A stretch of 64,000 bases of DNA from Microbacterium halimionae (GTDB lineage Bacteria > Actinomycetota > Actinomycetes > Actinomycetales > Microbacteriaceae): assembly GCF_011761265.1 (NCBI RefSeq), contig NZ_JAAOZB010000001.1, positions 434,001-498,000 on the forward strand. The letters run 5' to 3'. The notes beneath the pieces were generated by a model. That model made no database searches. It was not told the DNA's origin and saw nothing but the letters and a program-made list of their open reading frames with translations. The position numbers were made by a program, and so were the translations under genes. Shown piece after piece: positions 21,444 through 57,503 of the stretch; the first letter of the stretch is position 1; each line of letters begins with the position of its first letter.

Positions 21444-22268
21444 GTGGACATCAACACCGTCACGAGCTTCCGTGCGGCGCGCTCACGCGATGCTCTGACA
21501 CTTGCGCCGAGTGAGGACTTCATTGCTGGCGGCACGTGGGTCATGAGTGAGCCGCAACCCGAGACAACCGGGTTCGTGGATCTGACCACAATGGCGTGGA
21601 CTGACATCGAGATCCTCCCCGATGGGCTGCGCATTTCGGCCACCTGCACCATCGCACGACTGCTCGCCTGGGCCACGGACTCAACGACTGCTCCCGCTGA
21701 GTGGACAGCCCTGGCGCTTGTGCCCGATGCTGCAGATGCTCTGCTCGCGTCGTTCAAAATCTGGAACACAGCGACCGTTGGTGGCAACGTATGCCGGTCG
21801 TTTGCCGCCGGCGCTATGGTCTCATTCGCTGCCGCGCTCGATGGCGTCGCGTGGATCTGGCAGCCCGATGGTGGCGAACGCCGCGAACCTGTTGCGGGCA
21901 TCATCACCGGCAACGGTGAGAACAACCTCGCGCGCGGCGAAGTATTGCGCGCTGTCGAGCTGCCCGCTTATGCGCTTCGCTCAACCGCGCTGCTTCGAAA
22001 GATCGCTCTCGCGGAGCTTGGACGGTCGGGGTGTGTCGTCACCGGCCGTGTCGACGAAGACGACTCGGCAACGTTCGTGGTGACAGCCGCGACCCTCACT
22101 CCGCACGTGATGCGGTTTGAGGCGCTTCCAACCCGCGAAGCGCTCACGGATGCTGTCGCGTCGGCGCCCGATTTCTACACCGATCCGCTCGGCTCAGCCG
22201 ACTGGCGTCGGGGCGTGAGTATTGAGTTCGCTCAGAATATTCGAGGCGACCTGGAGGCGACGCGATGA
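21444..22268 (+). CDS. Xanthine dehydrogenase-type FAD-binding subunit
   Basis: FAD subunit (CoxM/XdhB type) of a molybdenum hydroxylase, 274 residues. The FAD loop is EDFIAGGTWVMSE, a variant of the usual AGGTD/AGGT-N. The second FAD contact is FKIWNTATVGGNVCRSFAAGA. The C-terminal domain follows from about residue 165. It passes electrons from the 2Fe-2S centres to FAD. GTG start with AGGAGG (21433-21438) five bases upstream. It overlaps the next gene by 4 bases. Confidence 0.9.
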   Translation: MDINTVTSFRAARSRDALTLAPSEDFIAGGTWVMSEPQPETTGFVDLTTMAWTDIEILPDGLRISATCTIARLLAWATDSTTAPAEWTALALVPDAADALLASFKIWNTATVGGNVCRSFAAGAMVSFAAALDGVAWIWQPDGGERREPVAGIITGNGENNLARGEVLRAVELPAYALRSTALLRKIALAELGRSGCVVTGRVDEDDSATFVVTAATLTPHVMRFEALPTREALTDAVASAPDFYTDPLGSADWRRGVSIEFAQNIRGDLEATR

Positions 22269-29762: not shown

Positions 29763-29811
29763 GCCCCAAGTATCGAACGTACCTCCGACATTGAGCATCC
29801 CAAGCCAGCCT

Positions 29812-31086: not shown

Positions 31087-31692
31087 TCACCCGAACGTGC
31101 CGGAGGGCCGATAGACAACCGACGAGACGGCACCGTTGAGCGAGCCGAGAGTCGAGCAGTACGGAGTGCAGTTGAGTCGAGAACCGCCGTACGAGGTATT
31201 CGCATACGTGGTGACCCAGCAGTTCGCATAACCTCGTGCCGATCGGGCGGTGTCGTTCCATCCCGACGGAAGACTCGGAAAACCATAGGTCACGCCATTG
31301 CAACCGGAGCCGGTTCCCCAGTGGAGAAGCGACGTTCCGCTCGCGCCGGTTGACGACCACAGCGTGCCGACGTGCACGGTGCTCTCCGCGGCGAGCGCCG
31401 TGCGCGACGGCGTCTCGCCTGCAACGCCAAGTAACTTCTCGAGGTCTCCGGGCGCACCGTCGGCGATGAACTCTTTCGCCGCAGCGACGGTATCAAAGCA
31501 CGAGATCACCGTCGGCACGCGCGTCACGTCATCTTTGCTCGTGATGGGTAGCCCACCGACTGTGCACGCGCGGGCGGGAGCAGTGCTGACCTGAACCTCA
31601 GATGCCGACGCCGCAGTGGGAACCGCAAACAAACCCGCAACCACCAGGACCGCACCTACCGCTACCGATGCGAGCCCTCTCCAGCGAGTCAC
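31087..31692 (-). CDS. Secreted protein of unknown function
   Basis: About 201 residues. A clear signal peptide (LASVAVGAVLVVAGLFAVPTAASASE) is followed by a cysteine-containing mature domain. The C-terminal part (CNGVTYGFPSLPSGWNDTARSARGYANCWVTTYANTSYGGSRLNC) looks like the short, aromatic/Gly-rich crystallin or inhibitor I36-type modules seen in secreted actinobacterial proteins, but I do not assign a family. GTG 31692 has CAGGAG seven bases upstream. It overlaps the upstream AraC-type gene by 4 bases, so the two are co-translated. Confidence 0.65.
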   Translation of the reverse strand: MTRWRGLASVAVGAVLVVAGLFAVPTAASASEVQVSTAPARACTVGGLPITSKDDVTRVPTVISCFDTVAAAKEFIADGAPGDLEKLLGVAGETPSRTALAAESTVHVGTLWSSTGASGTSLLHWGTGSGCNGVTYGFPSLPSGWNDTARSARGYANCWVTTYANTSYGGSRLNCTPYCSTLGSLNGAVSSVVYRPSGTFG

Positions 31693-32126
31693 AGCCAAAC
31701 TCCTGTCGTGCCGCGCCCCCACCGGTGCGCCCGGGAGACATCTTCCTCTTGCTGACGGAGCCGGCGCTGCAGTTGCAGGGGCGTCTCATCGAACACCCGC
31801 CGAAAGTGAAATTTCATTGCGCTGAGATTCGTAAAACCCGCGCCCTCAGATGCGACCGTCAGGCTCCGGCACTGCCCGCACAAGAGCGAACGCCGCACCC
31901 GCTGCACACGAGCCCGGCCGATGGCGTACGCCACACTCTCACCCTCTGAGAAGGTGCGATCGAGGGTCTTCCGCGATACACCAAGTACCCCAGCGAGTGC
32001 ATCCTCATCAAATTGCGGATCCCAGCACTGTTCGCTGATGACCTGCAACGCTCGCACTCTAAGTTGAGCGCGCCGTGTTGTTGTCATGTGCGACACGTGA
32101 TCGGATGCTGCCGTCGATGCTCTCAT
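31689..32126 (-). CDS. AraC-type DNA-binding protein, short form
   Basis: A 145-residue protein that consists mainly of an AraC/XylS helix-turn-helix pair (FDEDALAGVLGVSRKTLDRTFSEGESVAYAIGRARVQRVRRSLL, then VASEGAGFTNLSAMKFHFRRVFDETPLQLQRRL). It lacks an N-terminal effector domain, which is unusual. An ATG at 32087 is an alternative start. It diverges from the aldehyde dehydrogenase operon, with the 32127-32230 gap between them, and is the likely regulator of that operon or of the secreted protein to which it is coupled. Confidence 0.75.
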   Translation of the reverse strand: MRASTAASDHVSHMTTTRRAQLRVRALQVISEQCWDPQFDEDALAGVLGVSRKTLDRTFSEGESVAYAIGRARVQRVRRSLLCGQCRSLTVASEGAGFTNLSAMKFHFRRVFDETPLQLQRRLRQQEEDVSRAHRWGRGTTGVWL

Positions 32127-32230: not shown

Positions 32231-33742
32231 ATGACGATTGAGATCGGAAACATCGCGTTGCGCGAGCGCGTGTCACAGTTTCTCGCTGACGACCCGGGAA
32301 AGCTGCTGATCGGCGGCGCTTGGGTTGAGGCATCCTCCGGCGAACGCTTCTCTACTATCGACCCGGCGACGGGCGCCGTCATCGCGCACGTGGCACGCGC
32401 GAGAGAAGCGGATGCCGACAAAGCCGTATCTGCGGCGCGCACAGCGTTGATCTCCCCGGCGTGGGCGAAGATGACACCCGCCGCCCGCAGTGCGCTGCTC
32501 TGGCGCATCGCCGATGTCATGCAGGAGCACCTCGAAGATCTTGCCGAGCTTGAAACGCTCGACCAGGGCAAGAACCTGCGCACATCGCTTTTCGGCGAAG
32601 TGCCGGCCGCGATCAGCCAGTTCCGTTACTACGCGGGGTGGCCGACCAAGATCACCGGCGAGACGATTCCCACCTCACTTTCGCGCACCCCTCCCGGTAA
32701 AGAGGTGTTCGCCTATACGCGGCGTGAGCCCGTCGGCGTCGTCGCGGCGGTCGTGCCGTGGAACTCGCCTCTCATCATGACGGCGATGAAGCTCGCCCCC
32801 GCTCTCGCTGCTGGCTGCACAATCGTGCTGAAGCCCGCCGAAAACACCCCGCTCACGGCGCTCTACCTCGGCCGCCTGTTGCAAGAAGCCGGTGTTCCCG
32901 ATGGTGTCGTCAATATCCTCACCGGCTACGGCACGGAGGCCGGGCAAGCCCTCGCCGATCATCGCGGTGTCGACAAACTCGCATTCACTGGCTCAACCGC
33001 TGTCGGCAAACGACTCGTGAGTTCGGCCGCCGGTAGCTTGAAGCGCCTCACGCTCGAGCTCGGCGGAAAGTCACCGTCGATTATCATGCCCGACGCCGAC
33101 CTCCCTGCCGCGATCGAGGGAGTCTCACGCGGAATTTTCGACAACGGCGGCCAGGTGTGTGTCGCGAGCGCGCGCATTTACGCCCACCGCGACGTGTATC
33201 AAGACGTGGTCGACGGCATGGCTGCCGCGGGCGACAAGCTGCGCCTTGGGCACGGTCTCGACAGCGCAGCCGACCTTGGGCCCCTCGTGAGTCGGGCGCA
33301 GGCCGAGCGCGTATCTGACTTCATTTCGGAGGGTCGCGTTGAAGGCGCAACTGTCGTCACGGGCGGCACGCTCAGCGGACCGGCCGACACGTTCTTCTCC
33401 CCTACTGTGCTCACCGATGTGCGCGCCGATATGCGCCTCATGCGGGAAGAAATTTTCGGCCCGGTTGCCGTCGTCACACCGTTCGATGACCTCGACGAGG
33501 TTGTCGGCTGGGCCAACGACAGCGACTACGGTCTCGCAGCGAGCGTCTGGACCGAAGGCCTCAGCAACGGGCATCGCGTCGCCTCAGCTCTCGAAGCCGG
33601 AACCGTGTGGGTCAATTGCCACTCGTTCCTCGGCCCCGAGCTCCCCAAGGGTGGCCACAAAGAATCGGGCTGGGGATATGAGAACGGCGCCCAGGGCCTT
33701 GAAAACTACCTCGAGACAAAGACAGTGGTGATGGTCATATGA
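32231..33742 (+). CDS. NAD(P)-dependent aldehyde dehydrogenase
   Basis: Aldehyde dehydrogenase of 503 residues, the normal length for the family. Catalytic Glu276 lies in LELGGKSPS and the nucleophile Cys310 in NGGQVCVAS. The NAD contact ENTPLTALYL and the FTGSTAVGKRL motif are present. It oxidises an aldehyde to an acid. It is first in a tight five-gene operon (each junction overlaps by 1 or 4 bases), so its substrate should be an intermediate made by the GMC oxidoreductase or the ThDP decarboxylase further down. The precise aldehyde is unknown. Confidence 0.92.
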   Translation: MTIEIGNIALRERVSQFLADDPGKLLIGGAWVEASSGERFSTIDPATGAVIAHVARAREADADKAVSAARTALISPAWAKMTPAARSALLWRIADVMQEHLEDLAELETLDQGKNLRTSLFGEVPAAISQFRYYAGWPTKITGETIPTSLSRTPPGKEVFAYTRREPVGVVAAVVPWNSPLIMTAMKLAPALAAGCTIVLKPAENTPLTALYLGRLLQEAGVPDGVVNILTGYGTEAGQALADHRGVDKLAFTGSTAVGKRLVSSAAGSLKRLTLELGGKSPSIIMPDADLPAAIEGVSRGIFDNGGQVCVASARIYAHRDVYQDVVDGMAAAGDKLRLGHGLDSAADLGPLVSRAQAERVSDFISEGRVEGATVVTGGTLSGPADTFFSPTVLTDVRADMRLMREEIFGPVAVVTPFDDLDEVVGWANDSDYGLAASVWTEGLSNGHRVASALEAGTVWVNCHSFLGPELPKGGHKESGWGYENGAQGLENYLETKTVVMVI

Positions 33743-35121
33743 GTCGCATTATTTTCGGCGTGTTCGAGATGATGAATCCGAGCAACGGCATGCCAACGTG
33801 GACGCACCCGGAGGGCCGCGGCGACGATTGGGACCAACTCGACTACTGGGTCGGGCTCGCGAAAGAGCTCGACCAGGCCGGGTTCGACTTTCTCTTCTTC
33901 GCCGACACCTATGGCTACGCAACTCTTGATGGGCGGATGCCCGAAGAAGTTGCCGCCCACGGCATCCAGTTCCCCGCACTCGACCCCATGCTCGCGATCG
34001 CGACTCTCGCGCACGAAACCGAGAACCTCGGGTTTGTGGTGACTTCGCCGACGACCGTCGAGCGCCCGTATGCGCTCGCGCGGCGGTTTGCGACCCTTGA
34101 TCGCTTCACGGGCGGTCGCATCGGCTGGAACATCGTCACGGGCAGTTCACAGAAGACCACAGACGACCTCTTCGGCGTCACCGAAACGCTCACGCACGAC
34201 CAGCGTTACGACGCCGCCGATGACTTTCTCGACACGTGTCTGCGCTTCTGGGAGCACAGCTGGGACGACGATGCCGAAGTCCGCGACCGAAAAACCGGCA
34301 TGTATGCCGACCCCGCAAAGCTCCACCGCATCGAGGTTGATGGCACGTACCAGCGCTCGCACGGCATCTTCGCTGTTCCGCCGACACCGCAGCGCACCCC
34401 CGTGCTGTTTCAGGCGGGAACGAGCGACCGTGGCCGCGCGTATGCTGCCCGAAACGCCGAGGCTGTCTTCATTCAGGGCCAGACGATCGCGGGCGCGGCC
34501 GGCCACGTTGCCGACATTCGCGCACAGGCAGAACTGCAGGGTCGGGATGCCGCTGACGTCAAGGTCGTCACAGGAATGACCGTGACCGTTGCCCAGACCG
34601 AGGAAGAAGCTCGCGCCAAGCGCGCTGAATATGAGGCCCTGCTCGGCATCGACGACGCAGCCGTCATGTTTGCCGGCATCACCGGCATCGACCTCACCGG
34701 GTTTGACCCCGAAACGAAGCTCACCGACATCAAGACCGATCTCGGCCAGACCCTCGTTGATCGCTACGCCAAGAAAGACCCCGACGTGCGCGTGCGGGCG
34801 GTGCTCGATCAGTTCCGCACGAAGGCGATCCGTGGCTTCCAAGTGACGGGTACTCCAGAACAGGTCGCCGACGAGATCGAAGCCATCGTCGACGGCTCGG
34901 GTATCGACGGCATCATGCTCGAACCCACGTTCGGCGGACCCGCTGCGTACCGGGACTTCATCGAGCTGGTACTGCCGATCCTTGCCGCACGCGGCCGGGC
35001 CGAGTCATCCGTTGGTTCTCCCACCCTTCGCGAGCGCTTCAGCGGCGCACCGCGTCTTTCCCCCACCCACCGCGCTCACCGACTGTCGGCGAGCGCCCAA
35101 GAAACAGGAGTTCTGGCATGA
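33739..35121 (+). CDS. NtaA/DmoA-type flavin-dependent monooxygenase
   Basis: Luciferase-like (LLM) monooxygenase of 460 residues, in the NtaA/SnaA/DszA/DmoA group by eye. It has HGIQFPALDPMLAIATLAHETENLGFVVTSPTTVERPYALARRFATLDRFTGGRIGWNIVTG and the loop TPVLFQAGTSDRGRAYAARNAEAVFIQG. Such enzymes use FMNH2 made by a separate reductase, not seen here, to attack C-S or C-N bonds (nitrilotriacetate, dimethyl sulfide, sulfones) or similar. The ATGA overlap with the dehydrogenase gene and with the next gene ties it to the operon's pathway. The residues after about 420 are Ser/Arg-rich and not conserved. Confidence 0.88.
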   Translation: MSRIIFGVFEMMNPSNGMPTWTHPEGRGDDWDQLDYWVGLAKELDQAGFDFLFFADTYGYATLDGRMPEEVAAHGIQFPALDPMLAIATLAHETENLGFVVTSPTTVERPYALARRFATLDRFTGGRIGWNIVTGSSQKTTDDLFGVTETLTHDQRYDAADDFLDTCLRFWEHSWDDDAEVRDRKTGMYADPAKLHRIEVDGTYQRSHGIFAVPPTPQRTPVLFQAGTSDRGRAYAARNAEAVFIQGQTIAGAAGHVADIRAQAELQGRDAADVKVVTGMTVTVAQTEEEARAKRAEYEALLGIDDAAVMFAGITGIDLTGFDPETKLTDIKTDLGQTLVDRYAKKDPDVRVRAVLDQFRTKAIRGFQVTGTPEQVADEIEAIVDGSGIDGIMLEPTFGGPAAYRDFIELVLPILAARGRAESSVGSPTLRERFSGAPRLSPTHRAHRLSASAQETGVLA

Positions 35122-35618
35122 GAGCCGACGCTGTTGAGGCGGTGATTCGCGGGCTCAAACGTGCCGGCGTCACCGTCGCTACCTACCTGCCCGACTCGCT
35201 CTTGAAAGAGCTCTACCCCGCCCTCGATGCCGACCCCGACATTCGCACGATTCCCGTGACGAACGAGGGCGAAGGCGCCGCAATCGCCGGCGGTGTTTTC
35301 CTCTCGGGTCAGCGTGCTGTGTTGATCATGGAGAACTCCGGGTTGCGCGCCGCGACCGAGCACCTTGCCCGCATGGGCCTTGGCGCCGGTATTCCGGTGG
35401 TCATGATCATGAGCTACCGCGGTGAAATGGGCGAAAACAACTGGTGGGCGATCCCGCACGGCATCACGATGGAGCCGCTGCTTAAGACCCTGCGCACGCC
35501 CTACACGATCGTGCACGACGTCGACAAGATCGAGCAGGCCGTCTTCAACGCGTATGAAACTGCGTACGCCTCGTACTATCACGCAGCAGTTGTTCTGGGA
35601 GGGGAGCTCGTCCGATGA
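35118..35618 (+). CDS. ThDP decarboxylase-like alpha subunit (ComD-like)
   Basis: A 166-residue pyrimidine-domain subunit of a two-part thiamine-diphosphate enzyme. TYLPDSLLKELYPALDADPDIRTIPVTNEGEGAAIAGGVFLSG carries the Glu that activates the cofactor (NEGEGA). The layout resembles sulfopyruvate decarboxylase subunit ComD and phosphonopyruvate decarboxylases. It overlaps the next subunit by 4 bases. The substrate is a 2-oxo acid, perhaps carrying a sulfonate or phosphonate; this is inferred. Confidence 0.85.
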   Translation: MRADAVEAVIRGLKRAGVTVATYLPDSLLKELYPALDADPDIRTIPVTNEGEGAAIAGGVFLSGQRAVLIMENSGLRAATEHLARMGLGAGIPVVMIMSYRGEMGENNWWAIPHGITMEPLLKTLRTPYTIVHDVDKIEQAVFNAYETAYASYYHAAVVLGGELVR

Positions 35619-36229
35619 GTTACAGCCGGTTTGAAGCCATGAAGCTCCTCGGGGCACGCCTCGAGAACGAACTCGTCATCCTCTCTCTCGGCGGCGCTGT
35701 CGACGAGTGGTACAACGCCGCGCCGCACATGCGCGACGCGAGCCTCTTTCAGCAGCAGCTCGGCTGCGTCACCCCCGAGGCATTTGGTCTTTCGGTTGGT
35801 CTCCCCAACCGTCGCATCGTCTCGCTCGACACCGACGGTGGACTGCTGTTCAACCTCGGTATCTTGGCGACGCTTGCGAATGAGCAGCCGAAGAACCTGT
35901 TCGTCGTCGTGTGGGACAACGAGCAGTACCAGTCGATCGGTGGCCCGCGCACGCACACGAAGGGTGGCCGCGTGAATCTCGCCGCCATCGCGCGCGGGGC
36001 CGGAGTCGAGAAAGCATTCACGGCCGAGACGCTCGAAGAGTTCGATGCTCACTGCGAAGCTGGGCTTCAGGCATCCGAGCCGTACATCGTGGTCGCCAAG
36101 ACCGATGGCATTCTCGAGCCTGGCATCAAGCGCAAGCACTCAGACGGACGCGAAGACAAATACATCTTCGTGCGTCACGTTGAGAAGACCGAGGGCATCA
36201 CGATCATGGGTCCGAGCGAGCACAACTGA
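35615..36229 (+). CDS. ThDP decarboxylase-like beta subunit (ComE-like)
   Basis: A 204-residue diphosphate-binding subunit. The ThDP/metal motif is seen as DTDGGLLFNLGIL, in place of the usual GDG...N. It also has NLFVVVWDNEQYQSIGG. It completes the active site together with the preceding gene product. The 1-base overlap with the GMC gene (TGATG) shows tight coupling. The enzyme would decarboxylate a 2-oxo acid to an aldehyde, which the aldehyde dehydrogenase could then oxidise. Confidence 0.85.
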   Translation: MSYSRFEAMKLLGARLENELVILSLGGAVDEWYNAAPHMRDASLFQQQLGCVTPEAFGLSVGLPNRRIVSLDTDGGLLFNLGILATLANEQPKNLFVVVWDNEQYQSIGGPRTHTKGGRVNLAAIARGAGVEKAFTAETLEEFDAHCEAGLQASEPYIVVAKTDGILEPGIKRKHSDGREDKYIFVRHVEKTEGITIMGPSEHN

Positions 36230-37791
36230 TGCCGATCGTTTCAGCTCCCGCTGCCGCCTACGACTTTCTTGTTGTGGGCGGCGGCGCAGCTGGTTGTGTA
36301 CTCGCGGCGCGGCTGTCAGAAGATTCTGCCGCTCGCGTGCTGCTGATCGAAAGCGGACCCGACCACCGCGGCCTGCGCGAAGTCTTAGACGCAGCACGCT
36401 GGGACGCCATGATCGGCGGGCCCTACGACTACGGCTACCACGCGACCCCAACCGATCACGTGCTCGGGCGGGCTATCGCCATGCCGCGGGGCAAAGTCCT
36501 TGGCGGCTCTTCGAGCACCAACGCGATGCTCTGGTATCGCGGTGCGCGCGCCGATTACGACGGCTGGGCAGATGCCGGGGCCACCGGCTGGAGCTATGAC
36601 GATCTGCTGCCCTACTTTCGCCGCTCCGAGGCACGTGCCGGCGGCGACCCTGCGTTTCGCGGCCTCGCTGGGCCCATGCGTGTCGGGCCACTGACCCGGG
36701 TGCACCCCATCGCTCATGCGCTGATCGACGCGGCCGGCGAGCGCGGCATCCCGGTGATCGAGGATGCCAACGGCACTTCCAATGAGGGGGCCGCCTACCC
36801 CGATTACAACGCGGTAGAAAACACCGACGGCTCATTCGAACGATGGAGCACGGCACGCGCGTATCTTGAGCCCGCGCTAGGGCGGGCAAATCTCGACGTG
36901 CTCGTCGATAGCGCCGTGCACACACTCGTACTTTCGGGCGACGCCGTATTGGGCGTGCGGCACATTGTCGACGGCGAGCTCATCACGACGACAGCGACCC
37001 GCACTGTGCTCGCCGCCGGAGCGCTCGATACGCCGCGGCTGTTGCAACGCTCGGGTATCGGAGATTCTGATCGGCTGCGTGCTGCCGGCATCCGGCCCGT
37101 GCACGAGCTGCCGGGCGTGGGCGAGAACTTTCAAGACCACCCCCTGATTCTTGGCGTGAACTTTCGCGCGCGCGCAGACCTCGGACCCGTGCTCGGCAAC
37201 GGTGGTGGTGCCATGGTGAATTGGCGGAGCACGTACGCCGAAGCTGGGCCCGATCTGCACACCGTCATTGCGCACGGCTCGCGCGGCGACGATGCTTTGC
37301 ATGCCACGCACGATCTTTCGGGCAATCGTGTGTTCGCTCTGGTTCCAGGGCTCTACGGTTCGCGAAGTATCGGGTGGGTGCGCTCGAGATCTGCCGACCC
37401 CGATGTGCCCGCCGACTTTCAGCCGAACTACCTGGCCGACCCGAGAGATCTCGGTGCGATGGTGGAGGCCCTGGATGCCGCGCAGGATCTGGTTGCGTCA
37501 TCCGCCTACGCCGAGCTGGCGGAGGGGCCGATCACACCCGTTTCTGGGCTCTCTCGCGACCAGCGCGTGCGGTTTGTGCGCGAAAACATCGGGTCTTTCT
37601 TTCACTGCGCAGGCACAGCTCGCATCGGCACCGACGCAGACGCGGTTGTCGACCCGGACCTGCGAGTTAGAGGTCTCTCGGGCCTGTGGATCGCGGATGC
37701 TTCGGTCATGCCGACCATCCCGACGGCCAATACGCAGGCTCCGACCGTGGCAATCGCAGAGCGCGGTGCGGAGTTGGTCGCGGCGGGCTGA
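36229..37791 (+). CDS. GMC-family flavin oxidoreductase
   Basis: FAD-dependent alcohol oxidase/dehydrogenase of 520 residues. The ADP-binding motif VVGGGAAGCVLAARLSE lies at 15-31, the GMC signature MPRGKVLGGSSSTNAMLWYRG near 85-105, and the C-terminal catalytic segment FFHCAGTARIGTD near 460, with IPTANTQAPTVAIAERGAE at the end. Related enzymes (choline dehydrogenase and relatives) oxidise primary alcohols to aldehydes. It is last in the operon and would either feed an aldehyde to the dehydrogenase or make the 2-oxo acid precursor. Confidence 0.9.
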   Translation: MPIVSAPAAAYDFLVVGGGAAGCVLAARLSEDSAARVLLIESGPDHRGLREVLDAARWDAMIGGPYDYGYHATPTDHVLGRAIAMPRGKVLGGSSSTNAMLWYRGARADYDGWADAGATGWSYDDLLPYFRRSEARAGGDPAFRGLAGPMRVGPLTRVHPIAHALIDAAGERGIPVIEDANGTSNEGAAYPDYNAVENTDGSFERWSTARAYLEPALGRANLDVLVDSAVHTLVLSGDAVLGVRHIVDGELITTTATRTVLAAGALDTPRLLQRSGIGDSDRLRAAGIRPVHELPGVGENFQDHPLILGVNFRARADLGPVLGNGGGAMVNWRSTYAEAGPDLHTVIAHGSRGDDALHATHDLSGNRVFALVPGLYGSRSIGWVRSRSADPDVPADFQPNYLADPRDLGAMVEALDAAQDLVASSAYAELAEGPITPVSGLSRDQRVRFVRENIGSFFHCAGTARIGTDADAVVDPDLRVRGLSGLWIADASVMPTIPTANTQAPTVAIAERGAELVAAG

Positions 37792-39370: not shown

Positions 39371-39475
39371 GCAGTCAATGTAGCGCAGTTCTCCCCAAGT
39401 AGGCGCCGCGTTTCGAGTTTCCACAATCGCATCTGTGTTCGAGTGAATGTCAGTGGCTGCTGCTTGAATATTAGT

Positions 39476-41898: not shown

Positions 41899-42498
41899 AT
41901 GACAACGCCCGCCCCGGTCCTTGAGCCACTCACCCCAGGAGCTCGACGCTTGCTGGATGCCGCATCCGTCCTCTTCTACGAAAGAGGCATTCACGCCGTC
42001 GGGGTCGACGTAATCGCCGAAGCGGCGGGGGTCACCAAGAAGACGCTCTACGACAGATTCGGCTCGAAAGAAGCGCTCGTCGTCTCATACCTGCAGCATC
42101 GCGACGAACGGTGGCGGGCTCATGTCGCCGTGCACCTCGCACGCGTTCCCGAGCCTGGGGTTGACCGCATCCTGATGATCTTCGACGCCGCCATCTCATG
42201 GTCTGACGACAACAGCCCGAAAGGATGCAGCGCCATCAATGCCCGCGCAGAAATCGGTGACGGCCATGATGGGCACCCTGTCTTTCCTGAGGTCTCGCGA
42301 CAGAAAACTTGGCTACTCGATCAGTTCGCGGGGCTCTGCACTGAGGCCGGGATGTCATCACCCGACGACCTAGCGCGCCAGCTCATGCTGCTCTATGAAG
42401 GCGCAATCGTCACGGTGGGCATGGAGACTTTCGCACACCCCTTTGAACTCGCCCGCTCCGTGTCGCGCTCGCTCCTTGAAGCGGCGGTGAGAGGCTAG
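41899..42498 (+). CDS. TetR-family transcriptional regulator
   Basis: A 199-residue repressor. The N-terminal helix-turn-helix is SVLFYERGIHAVGVDVIAEAAGVTKKTLYDRFGSKEALVVSYL; the C-terminal ligand domain follows. No ribosome-binding site; probably leaderless. It probably represses itself and the divergent EamA exporter, with the exported substrate or a toxic relative as inducer. The stop overlaps the stop of the convergent deaminase-family gene. Confidence 0.92.
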   Translation: MTTPAPVLEPLTPGARRLLDAASVLFYERGIHAVGVDVIAEAAGVTKKTLYDRFGSKEALVVSYLQHRDERWRAHVAVHLARVPEPGVDRILMIFDAAISWSDDNSPKGCSAINARAEIGDGHDGHPVFPEVSRQKTWLLDQFAGLCTEAGMSSPDDLARQLMLLYEGAIVTVGMETFAHPFELARSVSRSLLEAAVRG

Positions 42499-43535
42499 CG
42501 CGCTAGGAGCGCGTCGAGGGCGAGGAACTGGGCAGCAAACTCCGCCCGCATCCGGGACTTTTCCGCGTCGGTACAGAACGCTGCCTCAATACCGTTAACG
42601 GCAATCTGCTTCGCGGAATCTACATCAACGCCTAGCAGCGTGAGTCCTTCACGATATTCGCGCCCAAGGTCTGTGCGAAAGAACAGCGCATCATCAGTCG
42701 ACAGTGTGACTTTCAGTCCGGCGTCGATCATGGCGCGGATGCGGTGCGACGGATCGAGCACCCACCCTGAGCAAATCGTGGTCGACACGGGAGTAGCTGT
42801 GAAGGCGATACCGCGAGCTAGCGCCAGCTCGACGAGCGATGGCTCGTCCATGATGCGATACCCGTGGTCGAGCCGGTCACAGCCCAGCACTTCGATCGCC
42901 TCACGCACGGCATCCGGCGTCGCATTGTCAGTCTCGCCGACGTGAGCCGTCAGCTTGAGCCCGTGTTCACGCGCGAGTCGATAGGCCGCGACAAACCGTG
43001 TCGGGTCTTCGGTTCCTTCCGGCGTCAAATCATCCTGACCAATGCCAACGACCTCGGGCGCACCGTGCGCGATGACCTGACGCACAAGCTCAACCGCAGA
43101 CTCAGCGCTGTCTTGACGGTTAATCGCAACGACGATGCGAAACCCGACGCCGAACTCGCGCTCAGCCCGGCGTAGACCAGCGATCAAGGGGTCGATCACC
43201 TCGGCGTACGTCATCCCGCGCTCGGCAAAGTACTGCGGATTGATGAAGTACTCGCGGTAGCGCAAGTTACCGACAGCGACTGCGTGGCGTACGCCTTCTA
43301 CCGCGACACGCTCGAAGTCCTCCGGTTCGCGCAACACATCATGTGCCGCGCGAAAAGCCACGAGAAAATCAGCGAGATCGTCAAAGTTGAAGAGCTCTTC
43401 AGGGTCCGTCGCCCACAATTCGACGCCGTACTTCGCCGCGAGCTCGATGAACAACGGCGCCGTCAGGGTCGACGCAAAATGGCAGTGCAGTTCCGTCTTT
43501 GGGAGCAACTGCAGATAGTCGGAAGTACTGATCAT
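42495..43535 (-). CDS. Adenosine deaminase-family enzyme 1 (divergent)
   Basis: A 346-residue metal-dependent deaminase of the ADA superfamily. Metal ligands are His17/His19 (ELHCHF), the HVGE motif (KLTAHVGETDNA), CDRLDHGYRI and the ASP pair in STDDALFF. The HVGE motif keeps the catalytic Glu. The substrate loop ASTL replaces the usual DGS/DGA, and TPVSTTICSGW replaces the usual CPxSN, so the substrate may be a modified or different purine. ATG 43535 overlaps the regulator stop by 4 bases. It is last in an operon with an NMT1-type ABC transporter. Confidence 0.8.
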   Translation of the reverse strand: MISTSDYLQLLPKTELHCHFASTLTAPLFIELAAKYGVELWATDPEELFNFDDLADFLVAFRAAHDVLREPEDFERVAVEGVRHAVAVGNLRYREYFINPQYFAERGMTYAEVIDPLIAGLRRAEREFGVGFRIVVAINRQDSAESAVELVRQVIAHGAPEVVGIGQDDLTPEGTEDPTRFVAAYRLAREHGLKLTAHVGETDNATPDAVREAIEVLGCDRLDHGYRIMDEPSLVELALARGIAFTATPVSTTICSGWVLDPSHRIRAMIDAGLKVTLSTDDALFFRTDLGREYREGLTLLGVDVDSAKQIAVNGIEAAFCTDAEKSRMRAEFAAQFLALDALLAR

Positions 43536-44155
43536 TCCTGGCCACCATCGGGACGGAACGCAAATCCCTGTTTGACGATCAGCAGTCGAAACGCACCACC
43601 GTCGGCCGACCACCAGCGGTGCGAGACCCCGCCGCAGTAGTACGCGGTGTCGCCCGGCTCGAGTCGCTGCATCTGACCGTCGAGATCGATCATCACCGCC
43701 CCCTCGAGCACATATGCGAACTCATCTTCAGCGTGCACGAAGTGGACGCCCGGCGCTGTTGCTTCGGAGGAGACCTCCATCGGGTGAAACGGTCGATTCG
43801 AGTGCGCCAGCATGCGAGCAGTACCGGCCGCGAATCCCTGCGGCACTGACTCGCCACTTCGGTGGTTCACTTCGGTCTGTGGCGCACCGGCCGCTGGCGC
43901 ATCAGCGGCGGCAATGAGCTCAATCGGGCTCGTCTCCAACGCAAGCGCGATCCGCCGCAGCGAACCGAGGCTGGGTTGCGCAAGCCCTCGTTCCAACTGA
44001 CTCAGAAACGGATGCGAAAGCTCGGTCTCCCCCGCGAGCTGAACGAGCGTCAGCCCACGCGCTTTGCGCAGCTGCCGCATGTACGCGCCAAGACGCCGAC
44101 TCGAGGCCTCGTCACTTCGCGCATCAATCTCCGCGCTTGCGACGACTTCGCTCAC
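43532..44155 (-). CDS. XRE-cupin regulator in the deaminase operon
   Basis: A 207-residue regulator: helix-turn-helix at about 25-80 (LGAYMRQLRKARGLTLVQLAGETELSHPFLSQLERGLAQPSLGSLRRIALALETSPIELI) and a C-terminal cupin at about 125-200 (HAEDEFAYVLEGAVMIDLDGQMQRLEPGDTAYYCGGVSHRWW). It sits between two deaminase genes and overlaps both by 4 bases, so it is probably an autoregulator sensing a purine-related ligand. It is a paralogue of the XRE-cupin gene at 26.5 kb next to the xanthine dehydrogenase. Confidence 0.88.
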   Translation of the reverse strand: MSEVVASAEIDARSDEASSRRLGAYMRQLRKARGLTLVQLAGETELSHPFLSQLERGLAQPSLGSLRRIALALETSPIELIAAADAPAAGAPQTEVNHRSGESVPQGFAAGTARMLAHSNRPFHPMEVSSEATAPGVHFVHAEDEFAYVLEGAVMIDLDGQMQRLEPGDTAYYCGGVSHRWWSADGGAFRLLIVKQGFAFRPDGGQE

Positions 44156-45195
44156 GCAACATCCCCCGCAACACCGTAGCCCGCTGCGTACTCCGCGACC
44201 CGGTCAAGGTATTCAGCACGACGACGCGGTGTCAGCCACGATGCCTCGAACGAATTCGAAGCGAGCAGCACGAGGTCGGCGAGCGAAAGATCCGCCTGCT
44301 CCGCGAGAGCCACATAGTTGGCCGAGGCGTAAGCACCGAAGTAGGCGGGGTCATCCGAATTGATGGTGACGCGCACACCCTCGCGCATCAGCGCGACAAT
44401 CTCATCGGACTTCATCTGCTCAGTGACGAACGAGTTCGACACCGGGCAACACGTAAGCCCCAGCCCACGCTCTTTGACGAGCGCGACGAGCTCCGGGTTC
44501 TCCACGATGTTCGTGCCGTGATCGATGCGGTCGACCTCGATCTCCGTCAGTACCTGACGGATGTGATCGATCGAACCCGGCTGATCGATGTCGCAGTGCA
44601 TCGTCAGGAAGAACCCCTCAGCCTTCGCTCGCGCGAACACCGCCGCAAACTTCTGGGGTGGGTTGCCGCGCTCGTCGGAGTCGAGCCCGACGCCCACGAT
44701 CCACGATCGGTAAGGCAGCGCCTCCATGAGAGTTGCCATGGCGTACTCAGCCGAGAAGTCACGCAAGAAACACATGATCAATTCTGCCGAGACACCGAGT
44801 TCGCTCTGCGCGCGCACAGCCGCTCGCCGATACCCCGAGATCACAGTCTCAAACGGCACCCCTCGGCTCGTATGCGCTTGGGGGTCGAAAAACATCTCAG
44901 CGTGCACGACGCCGTCAGCGCTTGCTCGCTGCAAGTACGCCCACGCCAAATCATGGAAGTCATCCGCGGTCTGCAGCACGTTCATCGCCGGGTAGTAAAT
45001 GGCGAGAAAGCTGGTGAGATCGGTGAAGTCGTATGTCGCCTTCACTTCTTCCACCGATGTCTGATCCAGCGGGATGCCGTTTCGCTCAGCGAGCGCGAAC
45101 TTCAGTTCCGGCTCGAGTGTCCCCTCGAGGTGAAGGTGGAGTTCTGCTTTCGGAAGACCTGTCGCGAAAGCGAGGAGGTCGGACTTGGTGCTCAC
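44152..45195 (-). CDS. Adenosine deaminase-family enzyme 2 with altered HAGE motif
   Basis: A 347-residue ADA-superfamily enzyme close in layout to adenine deaminase. His20/His22 (ELHLHLEGTL), His226 (DRIDHGTNI) and the Asp281-Asp282 pair (INSDDPAYF) are intact, and CCPVSNSF is present. The motif that normally reads H-A-G-E reads H200-C-D-I-D204, so the catalytic Glu position is Ile203 with Asp202 and Asp204 beside it. A purine deamination role is inferred from the family and operon. GTG 45195 is the start; longer frames run into the permease gene. Confidence 0.8.
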   Translation of the reverse strand: MSTKSDLLAFATGLPKAELHLHLEGTLEPELKFALAERNGIPLDQTSVEEVKATYDFTDLTSFLAIYYPAMNVLQTADDFHDLAWAYLQRASADGVVHAEMFFDPQAHTSRGVPFETVISGYRRAAVRAQSELGVSAELIMCFLRDFSAEYAMATLMEALPYRSWIVGVGLDSDERGNPPQKFAAVFARAKAEGFFLTMHCDIDQPGSIDHIRQVLTEIEVDRIDHGTNIVENPELVALVKERGLGLTCCPVSNSFVTEQMKSDEIVALMREGVRVTINSDDPAYFGAYASANYVALAEQADLSLADLVLLASNSFEASWLTPRRRAEYLDRVAEYAAGYGVAGDVA

Positions 45196-45203
45196 CGTGT
45201 GAC

Positions 45204-46097
45204 CTAAATGCCTTTCTGAGGTGTCATACCCATTCGTGCCAGAACGACGTCTTCCACTATCTGAATGACGTTGTAGAGAATCAGCGAGGCTGCCGTGACC
45301 ACCACAACAGATGCCCAGAGCGCGCTGAATTGGGCCTGCGGTACGTAGCCCGCAATTGATCCACCGATACCGCCGCCGACTGCAAGCCATTCGGCAAGGA
45401 GCGCACCGGTAATAGCGCCCGGTACAGAGATGCGAACGGCCGCGAAGAACGCCGGGAGCGAGGTAGGCATAGCCACCGTGCTGAGCTTCTTCCAGGCACC
45501 GCCGCCGTAAACCTCAACGAGGTCGTTCATCTGCGGTGACGCTGACTTCAGCCCGAACGAGATGTTGACGAGAGCCGGGAAGAGCACCACGATTCCACCG
45601 ATGACAGCGACAGTCCAGAAGTCACGGCCGAAAATCAGAATGATCACCGGTGCCATGGCCACAAGAGGCACGGATCGCAGCAACATAGCAACTGGCATCA
45701 GTGCGCTCTCGGCGCCCTTACTCAGCTGGAAGAGACCGGCACCAAGGATGGCGACGATGAGACCCGCGACGAAACCGATAACGGCATCGCCGAGAGTGAC
45801 CCAAAGGTTGCCGAAGATCATTTCGCGGTTTGCTGCGGCGGCGGGCACCTCAAAGAGGTAGGCCCACACATCCGCGGGGCCCTTGCCGATCAGCGGAGAA
45901 ATCTGGAACGCCCAGAGCACGCCGACCCAGACAGCGAGTACCGCGACGATAGTTCCAATAAAGGTGAGTAAGCCCCACGCGAACGCCTTCAGCGCTCCGG
46001 ATGCCGCTTGCTTACGTACCGCCGCGTGAACATCGATCGACGGCTCTGTGCCGGTAGGCGATGCGTTCGCTGCGGTGATTGTTCCCGCGCCACTCAT
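45204..46097 (-). CDS. ABC transporter permease, NitT/TauT type (second)
   Basis: A 297-residue permease with about six helices: FAWGLLTFIGTIVAVLAVWVGVLW, then VTLGDAVIGFVAGLIVAILGAGLFQLS, and LYNVIQIVEDVVLARMG at the end. Its coupling loop is NDLVEVYGGGAWKKLSTVAMPTSLPAFFAAVRISV. It overlaps the other permease by 4 bases. With the ATPase and NMT1-type binding protein it forms an importer that, by context, may bring in a purine or modified base. Confidence 0.88.
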   Translation of the reverse strand: MSGAGTITAANASPTGTEPSIDVHAAVRKQAASGALKAFAWGLLTFIGTIVAVLAVWVGVLWAFQISPLIGKGPADVWAYLFEVPAAAANREMIFGNLWVTLGDAVIGFVAGLIVAILGAGLFQLSKGAESALMPVAMLLRSVPLVAMAPVIILIFGRDFWTVAVIGGIVVLFPALVNISFGLKSASPQMNDLVEVYGGGAWKKLSTVAMPTSLPAFFAAVRISVPGAITGALLAEWLAVGGGIGGSIAGYVPQAQFSALWASVVVVTAASLILYNVIQIVEDVVLARMGMTPQKGI

Positions 46098-46924
46098 GAT
46101 GCACTTCCTCTTGACCAGGGCGCGATGACCCGAGCAATCAGACCAACCAGCCCATAACCCGCGAGAGCGACAGCTCCCGAGGCCAGCGCCAAGCCCCAGA
46201 CAAGGGGAGCGTCCGAATTCTGCTGGGCGAGGATCATGGCAAGACCCACGCCGGCTTCGACTTTTCCAAAGAACTCACCCAGAACCGCACCGAGAAACGC
46301 GGCGGGAACTGCAATCTGGAGCGCGTTGAGAATGGCGGGCAACGCCGCAATAAGGCGCACCTTGAGCAGTTGCGTGAGCTTTGAGCCGCCGTAGACGCTG
46401 ATCAGATCAAGGCTGGTCTTGTCCGCTGACTTCAAGCCGAGCAATGCGCCCACGACAGTGGTGAAGAAGACCGACAGCGCGGCGAGAAACACGGCTGTGC
46501 CACTCGGCTCGCCTACTGCGGGAGCGCCAAAGAGCACGACGGCAAGGAAGCCGATAGCAACGATGGGAACGCAGTAGGTCAAGATTGCGAGCTGCATGGC
46601 GACACCTTCGAGCCGCGGAACGATCAGCACGAGCGCCGAAAGCAGCAGAGCGAGGACGTTTCCCCAGACGTAGCCGATACCTGCCTCAGTGAGCGTCACT
46701 GAGAAGTTACGCCAGTAGAACTGCCAACCAGCGTCGAAATAACTGATGATGACCGCGGGCGGGCTGGGGACGGGGTGCGCGCCGGAGGACGTCACGAATA
46801 CGGCAGAAATGATCCACCATAGGGCGACTAGTCCGATGCCACCGATCGCGCCGGTGACCCACGGCGGGAGATAGACATCTTCCCACTGAATCGCGCGACC
46901 TTTCGCGGGTGCGTCAGTGGTCAT
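46094..46924 (-). CDS. ABC transporter permease, NitT/TauT type (first)
   Basis: About 276 residues. Helices begin at [22 protein letters not shown]; the coupling loop is [35 protein letters not shown]. Start ATG 46924 gives [16 protein letters not shown]; the longer frame to 46975 extends into the ATPase gene. It overlaps that gene by 11 bases. Two different permeases imply a heterodimeric channel. Confidence 0.87.
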
Positions 46925-47738
46925 CAGCCGCCGCGCCCCCTTCGCCGAACAACAAGTCTGATGCCTGATCGACATAGGTGTGGAATTCGGGCGAACGCAT
47001 CATTTCAGGCAGCCGAGGCCGCGGCAGATCGATCGTCATAACTTCCTTGACGCGACCGGGGCGCGGGCTCATGACAGCGACCTGATCAGAAAGGAAGATT
47101 GCTTCGTTTATGCCGTGTGTGACCATCAGTGTGGTCGCGGGCTTCTCGGTCCAGATGCGCAGCAACTCGAGGTTCAGCTTCTGTCGCGTCATGTCGTCGA
47201 GCGCGCCGAAGGGCTCATCGAAGAGCAGAACTTCGGGGCGCATGATGAGCGAGCGCGCGATCGACACCCGCTGGCGCATTCCGCCAGACAGCTGCGCCGG
47301 CTTCGCTTTCTCGAAGCCTTTGAGCCCGACAAGCGAGATCATCTCGTCGATATAGGCCTTGTCGACGGACTTTCCCGCGACCTCGAACGGCAGGCGAATG
47401 TTGGTCATGACGCTGCGCCATGGCAACAGCGCCGAGTCCTGAAACGCGATGCCGAGCTTGTTTTCTTTGCGCATCTCCTTCGGGCTCTTGCCATCGACGC
47501 GCGTGGTTCCGCTCGTCGGTTGGTCGAGACCAGCAAGGATGCGCAGGATCGTTGACTTGCCGCATCCCGACGGCCCCAGCAACGACAGGAACGTGCCCTG
47601 ATCGGTGTGGAGGTTGGTGTCTTGCAGAGCTACCACCGACTTGCGGCCGCTCGTGAAGACTTTGTTGAGGTCAGTAATCTGAAGGCCGGTGCCCAGGGTC
47701 GAGCCCTGGACACCAGCCTCAGCGACGGGTTGCGTCAC
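46914..47738 (-). CDS. ABC transporter ATPase, NitT/TauT type
   Basis: A 274-residue ATP-binding protein. Walker [10 protein letters not shown] at 55-63, Q-loop [12 protein letters not shown], signature [13 protein letters not shown], Walker [14 protein letters not shown] and H-switch [13 protein letters not shown]. It follows the NitT/SsuB/ThiZ pattern. It energises the importer with the two permeases, all overlapped or closely spaced. Confidence 0.9.
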
Positions 47739-47752
47739 GTCAGAACTCCAAA

Positions 47753-48832
47753 TCAGCCCGCGTAGGCGATCAGGTCGGGGTTCTCCTCGTACACCTCTGC
47801 AAGCAGCGAGAGGTCGAAGAGATCGGATGCGGAAAGTTCGATACCAGCGCCAGCGAGACTTTCGATCGTGGCGGCCTGAAGCTCGTCGCTGATCGTAAAG
47901 AGACCGTTCTCGGCTGTCTCGTCAGTGACAACGAGATCCACCTGGGCAATAGACCCTGCCGTGGAGTTCTCGGGGTTCAGGTCGAGGTCTGCACCGTACT
48001 CTTCGTAGGCGAGACGTGCACCCTCTTCAGGGTCGTTGACCAGGTCGGTCCAACCCATGATTTCGGCCTTGAGGAAGGCTTTCACTGTCTCGGGGTAGTT
48101 GGCGATCATGTCGTCAGTCGTGACGAGTGTCTCTGCCACAAAGGGAAGTCCATTGTCGGCGAAGGGAAGGTTCGTTGTGTCGTAGCCCTCATTCGCGACG
48201 ATGATCGCCTCGTTCGTGAGGTAAGAGATGAATCCATCGACCTCACCGTTGATGAGCGGTGCCGGGTCGTACTGAACGGGCACAATCTCAACGTCATCGC
48301 TGGTGAGGCCATTTGCAGACAAGAAGGCATTGAACAGGGCGGTGTTGGAGTCCTGCACACCGATCTTCTTACCCACGAGGTCATCCACAGTGGCGATGTC
48401 GCCACCGTCAGCGAGCGAGAGTACCGTGAACGGGTTCTTCTGGTAAGTGGTACCGATGATCTTCAGCGGTGCGCCTTCTGAAGCAATAACCGAACCCGTC
48501 GAGACAGCGTCACTCATGCCGAAGTCGGCAGTGCCAGAGATGAGCTCGGGAGCGCTCGTTGAGGGACCAGGAACCAGCGTGACCGAGTCGAAGCCAGCAT
48601 CGGTGTAGTAGCCCTTGCTGTCAGCGAAGAACTCGCCCGCAAACTCTTCGTTCTTGATCCAGCTGAGCTGAACTGTGATGTCTTTCTTCATTGCTGAATC
48701 GCCATCGCTCGATGTCGAAGCATCGCCGCCAGCGTCCGATGAGCTTGAGCAAGCGCTCAGGGCGAGGGCAGAGATCGCGACCGCTGCGAGCGATGCGGCG
48801 ACGCGCGAGCGCCGCGAGGAAAAGATTGTCAT
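47753..48832 (-). CDS. NMT1/THI5-type substrate-binding lipoprotein
   Basis: A 359-residue lipoprotein ([10 protein letters not shown] lipobox) of the NMT1/THI5 binding-protein family. Mature part: [59 protein letters not shown]. Homologues bind pyrimidine precursors, riboflavin, taurine, nitrate and hydantoin-like molecules. Here it precedes two purine-type deaminases, so an N-heterocycle such as a purine base is the inferred ligand. The start follows GGAGA. It lies 14 bases before the ATPase. Confidence 0.88.
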
Positions 48833-57502: not shown

Positions 57503-57503
57503 A

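What the first reader, a model, noticed from the sequence alone, without database searches (positions are those of the whole stretch)
32231..37791. Five-gene operon joining aldehyde dehydrogenase, LLM monooxygenase, two-part ThDP decarboxylase and GMC oxidoreductase
All junctions overlap by 1 or 4 bases, so the proteins act together. A ComDE-like decarboxylase with an NtaA/DmoA-type monooxygenase suggests C-S (or C-P, C-N) bond chemistry. One hypothetical route: hydroxyacid oxidised to 2-oxo acid (GMC), decarboxylated to an aldehyde (ThDP pair), oxidised to an acid (aldehyde dehydrogenase), then cleaved by the monooxygenase, for example sulfolactate to sulfoacetate to glyoxylate plus sulfite. 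I know no described pathway with exactly this set.
Basis: partly seen in the sequence, partly recalled or inferred. Interest (0 to 1): 0.7.

Follow-up and report, generated by a model that had tools for sequence, protein, structure and literature searches.

The report
Probable heterocycle-trimming operon among purine genes
Five overlapping genes in a Microbacterium-type genome form a conserved but uncharacterised enzyme set that most likely strips a one-carbon group off a purine-like ring compound and feeds the rest into ordinary purine breakdown; it is probably not a sulfur pathway.

Summary
The five-gene operon is real: ALDH, LLM monooxygenase, two ThDP subunits and GMC oxidoreductase overlap by 4, 4, 4 and 1 bases. 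The ThDP pair belongs to a tight group (70-92% identity to the window in the aligned members) spread over Actinomycetota and Alphaproteobacteria, and scores below the curated cut-offs for sulfopyruvate and phosphonopyruvate decarboxylase. In 80 relatives it travels with GMC (77), ALDH (74), a deaminase-type amidohydrolase (67, but 7 of 16 LLM loci), xanthine-dehydrogenase-type enzymes (60) and adenine-deaminase-type genes (50). LLM (16 loci) and Rieske-type oxygenase genes (64 loci) never occur together, and the tree forces at least two changes, so they probably do the same job. LLM is nearest in the PDB to riboflavin lyase RcaE (41%). A two-subunit ThDP decarboxylase acting on a quinoxaline ring (LumKL) was published in November 2025. 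I propose: ring-CH3 to CH2OH (LLM/Rieske), CHO (GMC), COOH (ALDH), H (ThDP pair), then hydroxylation by XDH. A purine-type substrate, perhaps 2-methyladenine, is inferred from neighbours only; homology to LumK/LumL could not be tested.

The parts
32231..33742 (+). Aldehyde dehydrogenase; proposed heteroaryl-CHO to -COOH
   Evidence: PF00171 570 bits; NCBIfam best StyD 573 bits below cut-off 850; nearest PDB betaine-aldehyde DH 523 bits, phenylacetaldehyde DH 496 bits
33739..35121 (+). LLM flavin monooxygenase, NtaA/DmoA family; proposed hydroxylation of the ring substituent
   Evidence: TIGR03860 430 bits over cut-off; nearest PDB riboflavin lyase RcaE, 356 bits, 41-42% in the fold search
35118..35618 (+). 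ThDP enzyme, PYR-type subunit (ThN); conserved NEGEG glutamate
   Evidence: PF02776; TIGR03845 97.1 bits, below cut-off 147.95; 32-member alignment, 70-91% identity to the window
35615..36229 (+). ThDP enzyme, PP-type subunit (ThC); invariant DTDGG and DN, largely invariant C-terminal tail
   Evidence: PF02775; TIGR03846 85.8 bits, below cut-off 221.5; 16-member alignment, 76-92% identity to the window
36229..37791 (+). GMC oxidoreductase; proposed heteroaryl-CH2OH to -CHO
   Evidence: PF00732+PF05199; nearest PDB alcohol oxidase 260 bits, fatty acid photodecarboxylase 259, choline oxidase 243, pyridoxine 4-oxidase 223, HMF oxidase 219; NCBIfam choline DH 385 bits below cut-off 605
19329..20420 (+). 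XdhC maturation factor
   Evidence: PF13478, PF02625
20446..21342 (+). nucleoside phosphorylase family protein
   Evidence: PF01048; best NCBIfam uridine phosphorylase 186 bits, below cut-off
21444..22268 (+). FAD subunit of xanthine-dehydrogenase-type enzyme
   Evidence: PF00941
22265..25027 (+). Mo/FeS subunit of the only xanthine-dehydrogenase-type enzyme found in the genome; co-occurs with the operon
   Evidence: PF02738/PF20256; single PF02738 hit in own genome; present in 11 of 11 operon genomes of the genus; NCBIfam XdhA 498 bits, below cut-off 780
31689..32126 (-). AraC-type regulator, divergent from the operon, 104 bases upstream
   Evidence: PF12833; clustered with no protein of the relatives
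42495..43613 (-). adenosine/adenine-deaminase family protein, near the operon in several Microbacterium relatives
   Evidence: TIGR01430 239.7 bits over 216.55; nearest PDB 4gxw, 3rys
43532..44155 (-). XRE-cupin regulator between the two deaminase genes
   Evidence: PF13560 + PF07883; cluster 26, five sources including the window
44152..45390 (-). second adenosine/adenine-deaminase family protein
   Evidence: PF00962; TIGR01430 342.8 bits over 216.55
45204..48832 (-). NMT1/THI5-type ABC importer (two permeases, ATPase, binding protein)
   Evidence: PF00528 at 45204-46097 and 46094-46975, PF09084 at 47753-48832; ATPase 46914-47738 judged by its relatives
48993..50363 (-). amidohydrolase, deaminase type (not the close ortholog of the one in the relatives)
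   Evidence: best PRK08204 176 bits, PRK08203 8-oxoguanine deaminase 161 bits, both below cut-off; PDB 3hpa 138 bits

Best explanation
The operon encodes a four-step oxidative removal of a carbon substituent from an N-heterocycle of the purine (or pteridine) type. LLM monooxygenase with reduced flavin and O2, or a VanA-type Rieske oxygenase in relatives, hydroxylates a ring-bound methyl group. GMC oxidises the hydroxymethyl to the aldehyde, ALDH oxidises that to the ring carboxylate, and the two-subunit ThDP enzyme decarboxylates it at a C(=N)-COOH position, as LumKL does. The neighbouring xanthine-dehydrogenase-type enzyme then hydroxylates the freed ring carbon, and the product enters purine breakdown (XDH, HpxO, allantoin genes). 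Shown: gene set, operon, conservation, linkage, oxygenase alternation. Inferred: reactions, order, substrate.
For: GMC in 77 and ALDH in 74 of 80 loci. LLM 16 and Rieske-type 64, never together, with at least 2 changes forced on the tree: Dietzia in the LLM clade carries a full VanA-type oxygenase and a reductase-like protein, Subtercola, grouping with the Rieske rows, carries LLM. LLM is nearest to RcaE, which acts on a flavin; alkane monooxygenase LadA, a CH3 hydroxylase (recalled), is also close. Rieske parts match SxtT/SxtDIOX and NdmA. GMC relatives include CH2OH oxidases such as pyridoxine 4-oxidase and HMF oxidase. Two-subunit ThDP heterocycle decarboxylation, then a xanthine-oxidase-type step, is the LumKL-LumJ logic of PMC12746152. 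XDH is linked to the operon in the genus: 11 of 11 against 51 of 138. AdeC- or ADA-type genes in 50 of 80 loci; guanine deaminase in two Rhizobium clusters. HpxO and OHCU decarboxylase present.
Against: The amidohydrolase and XDH of the proposed core are mostly seen in Rieske-type loci: among 16 LLM loci 7 have the amidohydrolase and 3 an XDH within the flanks held, and the window itself has no close copy of that amidohydrolase. The only solved relatives of ThC are a phosphonopyruvate decarboxylase beta subunit (52 bits) and a ThDP-binding protein (40 bits). RcaE and NdmA remove N-linked groups, which gives no ring carboxylate. A distant GMC-ThN-ThC trio beside acyl-CoA-type ORFs (L121) points to hydroxy-acid chemistry. 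GMC is as close to fatty acid photodecarboxylases as to alcohol oxidases. ALDH's nearest solved relatives are not heteroaryl enzymes. ALDH is missing from 6 and GMC from 3 of 80 loci, some at contig ends.
Confidence: 0.42

Rival explanations
1. N-dealkylation with side-chain trimming: the oxygenase splits an N-linked side chain from a purine or flavin (as RcaE and NdmA do), and GMC, ThDP pair and ALDH turn the released hydroxy acid into oxo acid, aldehyde and acid.
For: LLM nearest to RcaE; Rieske parts match NdmA; a distant GMC-ThN-ThC trio next to acyl-CoA-type ORFs; classical ThDP substrates are 2-oxo acids (recalled).
Against: Leaves XDH and the deaminase-type amidohydrolase, present in 60 and 67 of 80 loci, without a role in the sequence, and needs an unknown purine with a hydroxy-acid side chain.
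Confidence: 0.27
2. Same chemistry on a pteridine or flavin product (6-hydroxymethylpterin, pterin-6-carboxylate, lumichrome) rather than a purine: a folate or riboflavin breakdown module.
For: RcaE and LumKL both belong to flavin catabolism; pterin-6-carboxylate has the required C(=N)-COOH; some amidohydrolases deaminate pterins (passages).
Against: No lum-type ring-opening genes among the neighbours annotated; neighbours include nucleoside hydrolase or phosphorylase, adenine/guanine deaminases and the purine route.
Confidence: 0.15
3. One reading: sulfolactate (or phosphonate) oxidised, decarboxylated as sulfopyruvate, oxidised to sulfoacetate and desulfonated by LLM.
For: Distant similarity to ComDE and phosphonopyruvate decarboxylase; LLM family includes C-S enzymes; importer ATPase of a relative weakly matches nitrate, sulfonate and phosphonate importer models, below cut-offs.
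Against: Window subunits far below the curated cut-offs; 32 ThN and 16 ThC members match these models with best E-values of only 4.8e-32 and 6.2e-28; purine-type context in two phyla; LLM nearer to RcaE (356 bits) than to DmoA (302) or DszA-type (207) enzymes.
Confidence: 0.05
4. Oxygenase demethylates N-methylated purines and GMC/ALDH only clear the formaldehyde, the ThDP pair serving an unrelated carboligation or decarboxylation.
For: NdmA-like Rieske parts, a GST-type protein and two VanA_C proteins in Rhizobium, reminiscent of the caffeine NdmABCDE set (recalled).
Against: GMC, ThDP pair and ALDH stay together where the oxygenase type changes; nothing explains the ThDP pair.
Confidence: 0.06

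Closest known systems
LumK/LumL, TPP-dependent quinoxaline decarboxylase of Nocardioides simplex lumichrome catabolism (PMC12746152; main text through the discussion read, supplement not seen)
   Same: Two small subunits of similar size (166 and 204 residues here; 20 and 23 kDa there); a xanthine-oxidase-type enzyme in the gene set and, in many relatives, a 50-kDa-class amidohydrolase; LumT/LumN oxidise CH2OH to CHO to COOH.
   Different: No P450, ring-opening or catechol dioxygenase genes among the neighbours annotated; RcaE-like LLM or VanA-type Rieske oxygenase instead; purine-type neighbours. Sequence homology to LumK/LumL not tested.
RcaE, riboflavin lyase of Microbacterium maritypicum
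   Same: Closest solved relative of the LLM protein, 41-42% identity; same NtaA/DmoA family.
   Different: Here in an operon with ALDH, ThDP pair and GMC. The 2025 paper reports no strain with RcaE beside lumichrome genes.
ComDE sulfopyruvate decarboxylase and phosphonopyruvate decarboxylase
   Same: Split PYR/PP ThDP enzyme.
   Different: Scores below the curated cut-offs; different neighbours.
NdmA-E methylxanthine demethylases and VanAB/TsaMBCD (Tsa and NdmC/E recalled)
   Same: VanA-type Rieske oxygenase with accessory proteins; in Tsa an aryl-CH3 goes to COOH through alcohol and aldehyde dehydrogenases.
   Different: Weak sequence match (32 bits to NdmA for VanA_C); ThDP step added; LLM takes the place of the Rieske enzyme in this genome.

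Membership tests
Sulfopyruvate decarboxylase ComDE | Scores above TIGR03845 / TIGR03846 curated cut-offs | tested here: not met
   97.1 vs 147.95 and 85.8 vs 221.5; for the other members only the best E-values were shown
Sulfopyruvate decarboxylase ComDE | Sulfonate genes in the neighbourhood | tested here: inconclusive
   No sulfonate enzyme among the neighbours annotated, but no exhaustive search; importer ATPase of a relative matches several importer models weakly
Phosphonopyruvate decarboxylase | Scores above TIGR03297 cut-off 312.5 | tested here: not met
   58.5 and 83.8 bits for the two subunits
LumKL-type heterocycle decarboxylase | Two-subunit ThDP enzyme linked to a xanthine-oxidase-type enzyme | tested here: met
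   60 of 80 loci and 11 of 11 operon genomes of the genus, compared
LumKL-type heterocycle decarboxylase | Sequence orthology to LumK/LumL | not tested
   N. simplex sequences were not reached; members of intermediate similarity were not seen in 394 class genomes
LumKL-type heterocycle decarboxylase | Decarboxylates a ring carboxylate | not testable with these tools
   needs enzyme assay
NtaA/DmoA FMN-dependent monooxygenase subfamily | TIGR03860 above cut-off | tested here: met
   430.1 vs 279.7
Riboflavin lyase RcaE | Closest solved family member by sequence and fold | tested here: met
   356 bits; first six fold hits, 41-42% (model pLDDT 74)
Riboflavin lyase RcaE | Cleaves riboflavin to lumichrome and ribose | not testable with these tools
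   needs assay; a paper that I took for the rca cluster report was not held
Ordinary purine catabolism (XDH, HpxO, OHCU decarboxylase, allantoin genes) | Genes present in the same genome | tested here: met
   PF01014 uricase absent
Ordinary purine catabolism (XDH, HpxO, OHCU decarboxylase, allantoin genes) | The five operon genes are part of the ordinary route | tested here: inconclusive
   51 of 62 genomes with an XDH match lack the operon LLM, which speaks against it; whether each runs the full route was not checked

The most novel reading that the evidence does not exclude
This would be a pathway for C-demethylation of a purine: 2-methyladenine, released from m2A of bacterial rRNA/tRNA or from a B12-like cofactor base, is deaminated, its methyl oxidised to a carboxylate, removed as CO2 by a ThDP heterocycle decarboxylase, and the hypoxanthine hydroxylated at the same carbon by XDH, with a flavin LLM enzyme and a Rieske enzyme as interchangeable first oxygenases in two phyla.
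Probability: 0.17. Interest if true: 0.85.

Novelty: new variant of a known kind. Interest (0 to 1): 0.62.

Why it matters
The authors of the 2025 lumichrome paper call ThDP decarboxylation of a heterocycle a new motif. If this operon does it too, the chemistry is widespread (two phyla, many rhizobia and roseobacter-type bacteria) and can be tested on a compact five-gene set. It would give a function to genes now named only 'thiamine pyrophosphate-binding protein', show two unrelated oxygenase types exchanged for one step, and give a route for modified purines or pteridines whose breakdown is little known.

Tried and rejected
Rfam scan of the window: no match; of 7 relatives: one, a 5' ureB sRNA match in L017 far from the operon, and no riboswitch. 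tRNA: none. Promoter/terminator scan: promoter-like 3 against 1.0 expected, terminator-like 4 against 4.1; not used. Search for intermediate relatives of the ThDP pair to reach the N. simplex lum cluster: 19 of 394 class genomes matched, all but two weakly. Three of those were inspected: L123 has a ThDP pair near Rieske-like, dioxygenase-like and Mo-hydroxylase-like ORFs and cannot be named; L121 is a GMC-ThDP trio with acyl-CoA-type ORFs; L122 has a ThN match a few kb from an aminotransferase-like ORF and was not followed. Plasmid records: 6 close relatives; 72 at a loose limit, 66 of them under 60% identity, 40 listed. Pterin deaminase: the literature hit (passages only) describes Arad3529; its sequence was not compared. 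Formaldehyde-clearing and cytokinin readings were considered and ranked low because they leave the ThDP pair unexplained.

Limits: 80 of 128 confirmed relatives were kept by the tool; presence calls used identity thresholds I chose and flanks of 10 kb or less; Fisher values ignore relatedness; my ORF caller misassigns some genes, so tblastn maps were used for counts. In four genomes of another family of the order (L004-L007; not among the 80) the LLM-like match next to ThN is only 30-33% identical and GMC 39-42%.
Full report
What is there. The window is G000:C1:434001-498000 of a 2.94-Mb genome. Its nearest public relatives by ThC are Microbacterium, and a same-genus genome (G702) has its XDH at the same coordinates as Microbacterium sp. 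Gd 4-13, so I call the genus Microbacterium. Families are ALDH (PF00171), LLM monooxygenase of the NtaA/DmoA subfamily (430 bits, cut-off 279.7), the two halves of a ThDP enzyme (PF02776, PF02775) and a GMC oxidoreductase. Expected catalytic motifs are present (meaning recalled). An AraC-type regulator (PF12833) is divergent, 104 bases upstream.

The ThDP pair is its own group. The window's subunits score 97.1 (cut-off 147.95) and 85.8 (221.5) for the sulfopyruvate models and 58.5/83.8 (312.5) for phosphonopyruvate decarboxylase. All 32 ThN and all 16 ThC members scanned match these models, with best E-values of 4.8e-32 and 6.2e-28 (their bit scores were not shown). ThC members from two phyla share 76-92% identity with the window and a largely invariant tail up to the last residue; ThN members share 70-91%. 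In plasmid records 6 matches have 73-75% identity and the other 66 of 72 are under 60%, those listed 24-42%. Four genomes of another family are a little further off (ThC 66-67%). The pair is rare: 7 of 297 genomes of the order (ThN), 2 of 394 of the class (ThC, E up to 1e-15).

Conserved context. A scan of species genomes gave 128 confirmed relatives, of which 80 were kept: Microbacterium and other Microbacteriaceae, Dietzia, Rhodococcus, Blastococcus, Nesterenkonia, and many Rhizobiales, roseobacter-type and a few other Alphaproteobacteria. With tblastn maps and the thresholds, recounted, GMC is present in 77 of 80, ALDH in 74, a deaminase-type amidohydrolase in 67, xanthine-dehydrogenase-type subunits in 60, and AdeC- or ADA-type genes in 50 (41 + 9). 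The amidohydrolase is lacking in 9 of the 16 LLM loci and in the window, and only 3 of the 16 show XDH within the flanks held. In proteobacteria the usual order is Rieske protein, GST, (AdeC), LysR, ThN, ThC, GMC, amidohydrolase, VanA_C oxygenase, XDH, 2Fe-2S, ALDH, mostly beside a BMP-type ABC importer. An annotated Rhizobium tumorigenes plasmid shows the same without AdeC, plus a second Rieske-type oxygenase alpha subunit and guaD. In Rhizobium sp. SG_E_25_P2 a guanine-deaminase match over its cut-off (417 vs 375.4 bits) lies just beyond the importer genes.

Two alternative oxygenases. LLM occurs in 16 of the 80 loci, Rieske-type genes in 64 (60 full sets, 3 with VanA_C alone, 1 with Rieske alone), and never both (Fisher p 3.7e-17 ignoring relatedness). 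The three VanA_C-only loci lie in genomes that hold a Rieske protein elsewhere (47-50% identity). Of 8 LLM-type genomes searched, 7 have none and one has a weak 35% hit. On a tree of the joined ThDP subunits the label needs 3 changes, at least 2 forced by supported branches. Dietzia, inside the LLM clade, has a full-length VanA-type oxygenase (Rieske + VanA_C) followed by a reductase-like protein with a 2Fe-2S domain; this is the 'Rieske alone' row, its oxygenase half falling under my threshold. Subtercola carries LLM and groups with the Rieske rows (its exact place has support 88/69). Exchange of one oxygenase for another around an unchanged GMC-ThDP-ALDH core suggests one shared step.

Link to purine breakdown. 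The genome has a single PF02738-type Mo subunit, the one at 22265-25027. Within 149 Microbacterium genomes the operon LLM (at least 79% identity; the next best listed match is 52%) is in 11. All 11 have that XDH (74% identity or more), against 51 of the other 138, 7 of those 51 only at 50-59% (Fisher p 3.7e-5). Where both lie on one contig they are about 4-15 kb apart in 7 of 8 genomes and 179 kb in one; in three genomes they are on different contigs. The own genome lacks PF01014 uricase but has HpxO over its cut-off (578 vs 500), an OHCU decarboxylase just past the window, and allantoinase and allantoate amidohydrolase matches over cut-off in the window. Downstream of the operon, on the other strand, lie two ADA-family proteins, an XRE-cupin regulator, an NMT1-type importer and a deaminase-type amidohydrolase.

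What the parts resemble. LLM's best PDB match is riboflavin lyase RcaE (356 bits; DmoA 302, LadA 287), and the predicted fold (pLDDT 74, 15 sequences) gives RcaE chains as the first six hits at 41-42%. GMC matches an alcohol oxidase, fatty acid photodecarboxylases and choline oxidase almost equally, then pyridoxine 4-oxidase and HMF oxidase. ALDH matches betaine-aldehyde and phenylacetaldehyde dehydrogenases. The Rieske parts match SxtT/SxtDIOX and NdmA. ThC has two weak solved relatives.

The key precedent. PMC12746152 (main text read through the discussion, plus passages; supplement not seen) reconstitutes lumichrome breakdown. LumT/LumN oxidise CH2OH to CHO to COOH, LumM (52 kDa) hydrolyses an amino-quinoxaline, LumK/LumL (20 and 23 kDa) form a ThDP enzyme that decarboxylates the quinoxaline carboxylate, and LumJ (xanthine-oxidase-like) hydroxylates the product. 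[quoted passage not shown] The present operon joins an RcaE-like LLM to a two-subunit ThDP enzyme and a GMC/ALDH pair, with XDH nearby.

Proposed mechanism. Ring-CH3 to CH2OH (LLM or Rieske), CHO (GMC), COOH (ALDH), H + CO2 (ThDP pair), then C-OH (XDH). It uses every operon gene once and ends in a product that the neighbouring genes can use. Reactions, order and substrate are inferred. A purine substrate is favoured by the neighbours; 2-methyladenine fits the need for a C(=N)-COOH intermediate, but pterins fit too.

Novelty. Ten full-text searches in the held open-access library showed no description of this operon; only asked for the gene set, several listings were cut (20 of 212, 10 of 341, 12 of 15, 10 of 11), and apart from PMC12746152 and passages of PMC9513972 only listings were seen. 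The kind of chemistry is known from one pathway, so I file it as a new variant.

Noticed in passing
L125 3877-7464 (Rhizobium sp. SG_E_25_P2) and L131 12.7-27.8 kb: Two oxygenase subunits (VanA_C without a Rieske match in L029/L125, 58% identical) seem to share one separate Rieske protein and a GST-type protein; the second sits near guanine deaminase.
   Followed up: partly
L123 1-10860: Distant ThDP pair (30%) in an unnamed actinomycete beside Mo-hydroxylase-like, Rieske-like and dioxygenase-like ORFs; another possible heterocycle pathway.
   Followed up: partly
L121 9198-11931: Distant GMC-ThN-ThC trio (35%, 35%, 27%) next to acyl-CoA dehydrogenase- and enoyl-CoA hydratase-like ORFs; suggests a different use of a GMC-ThDP pair.
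   Followed up: partly
window 56207-62804: Allantoin/allantoate catabolic genes (allantoinase 514 bits, allantoate amidohydrolase 497 bits, both over cut-off); an aminotransferase-like gene in between weakly matches pyridoxamine-pyruvate and aminoethylphosphonate transaminase models, below cut-off.
   Followed up: partly
window 28404-29798 and 39443-40906: Two proteins that look like DUF222/HNH endonucleases (name recalled, not searched) lie on either side of the operon.
   Followed up: no
L029 4992-5294 and relatives: Conserved protein of about 100 residues with no Pfam match just upstream of the Rieske protein in many proteobacterial clusters.
   Followed up: no
L004-L007: In four genomes of another family of the order the LLM-like match beside the ThDP pair is only 30-33% identical to the window's LLM.
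   Followed up: no
L025 4137: A second LLM-like match (42%) upstream of the operon in Frondihabitans.
   Followed up: no
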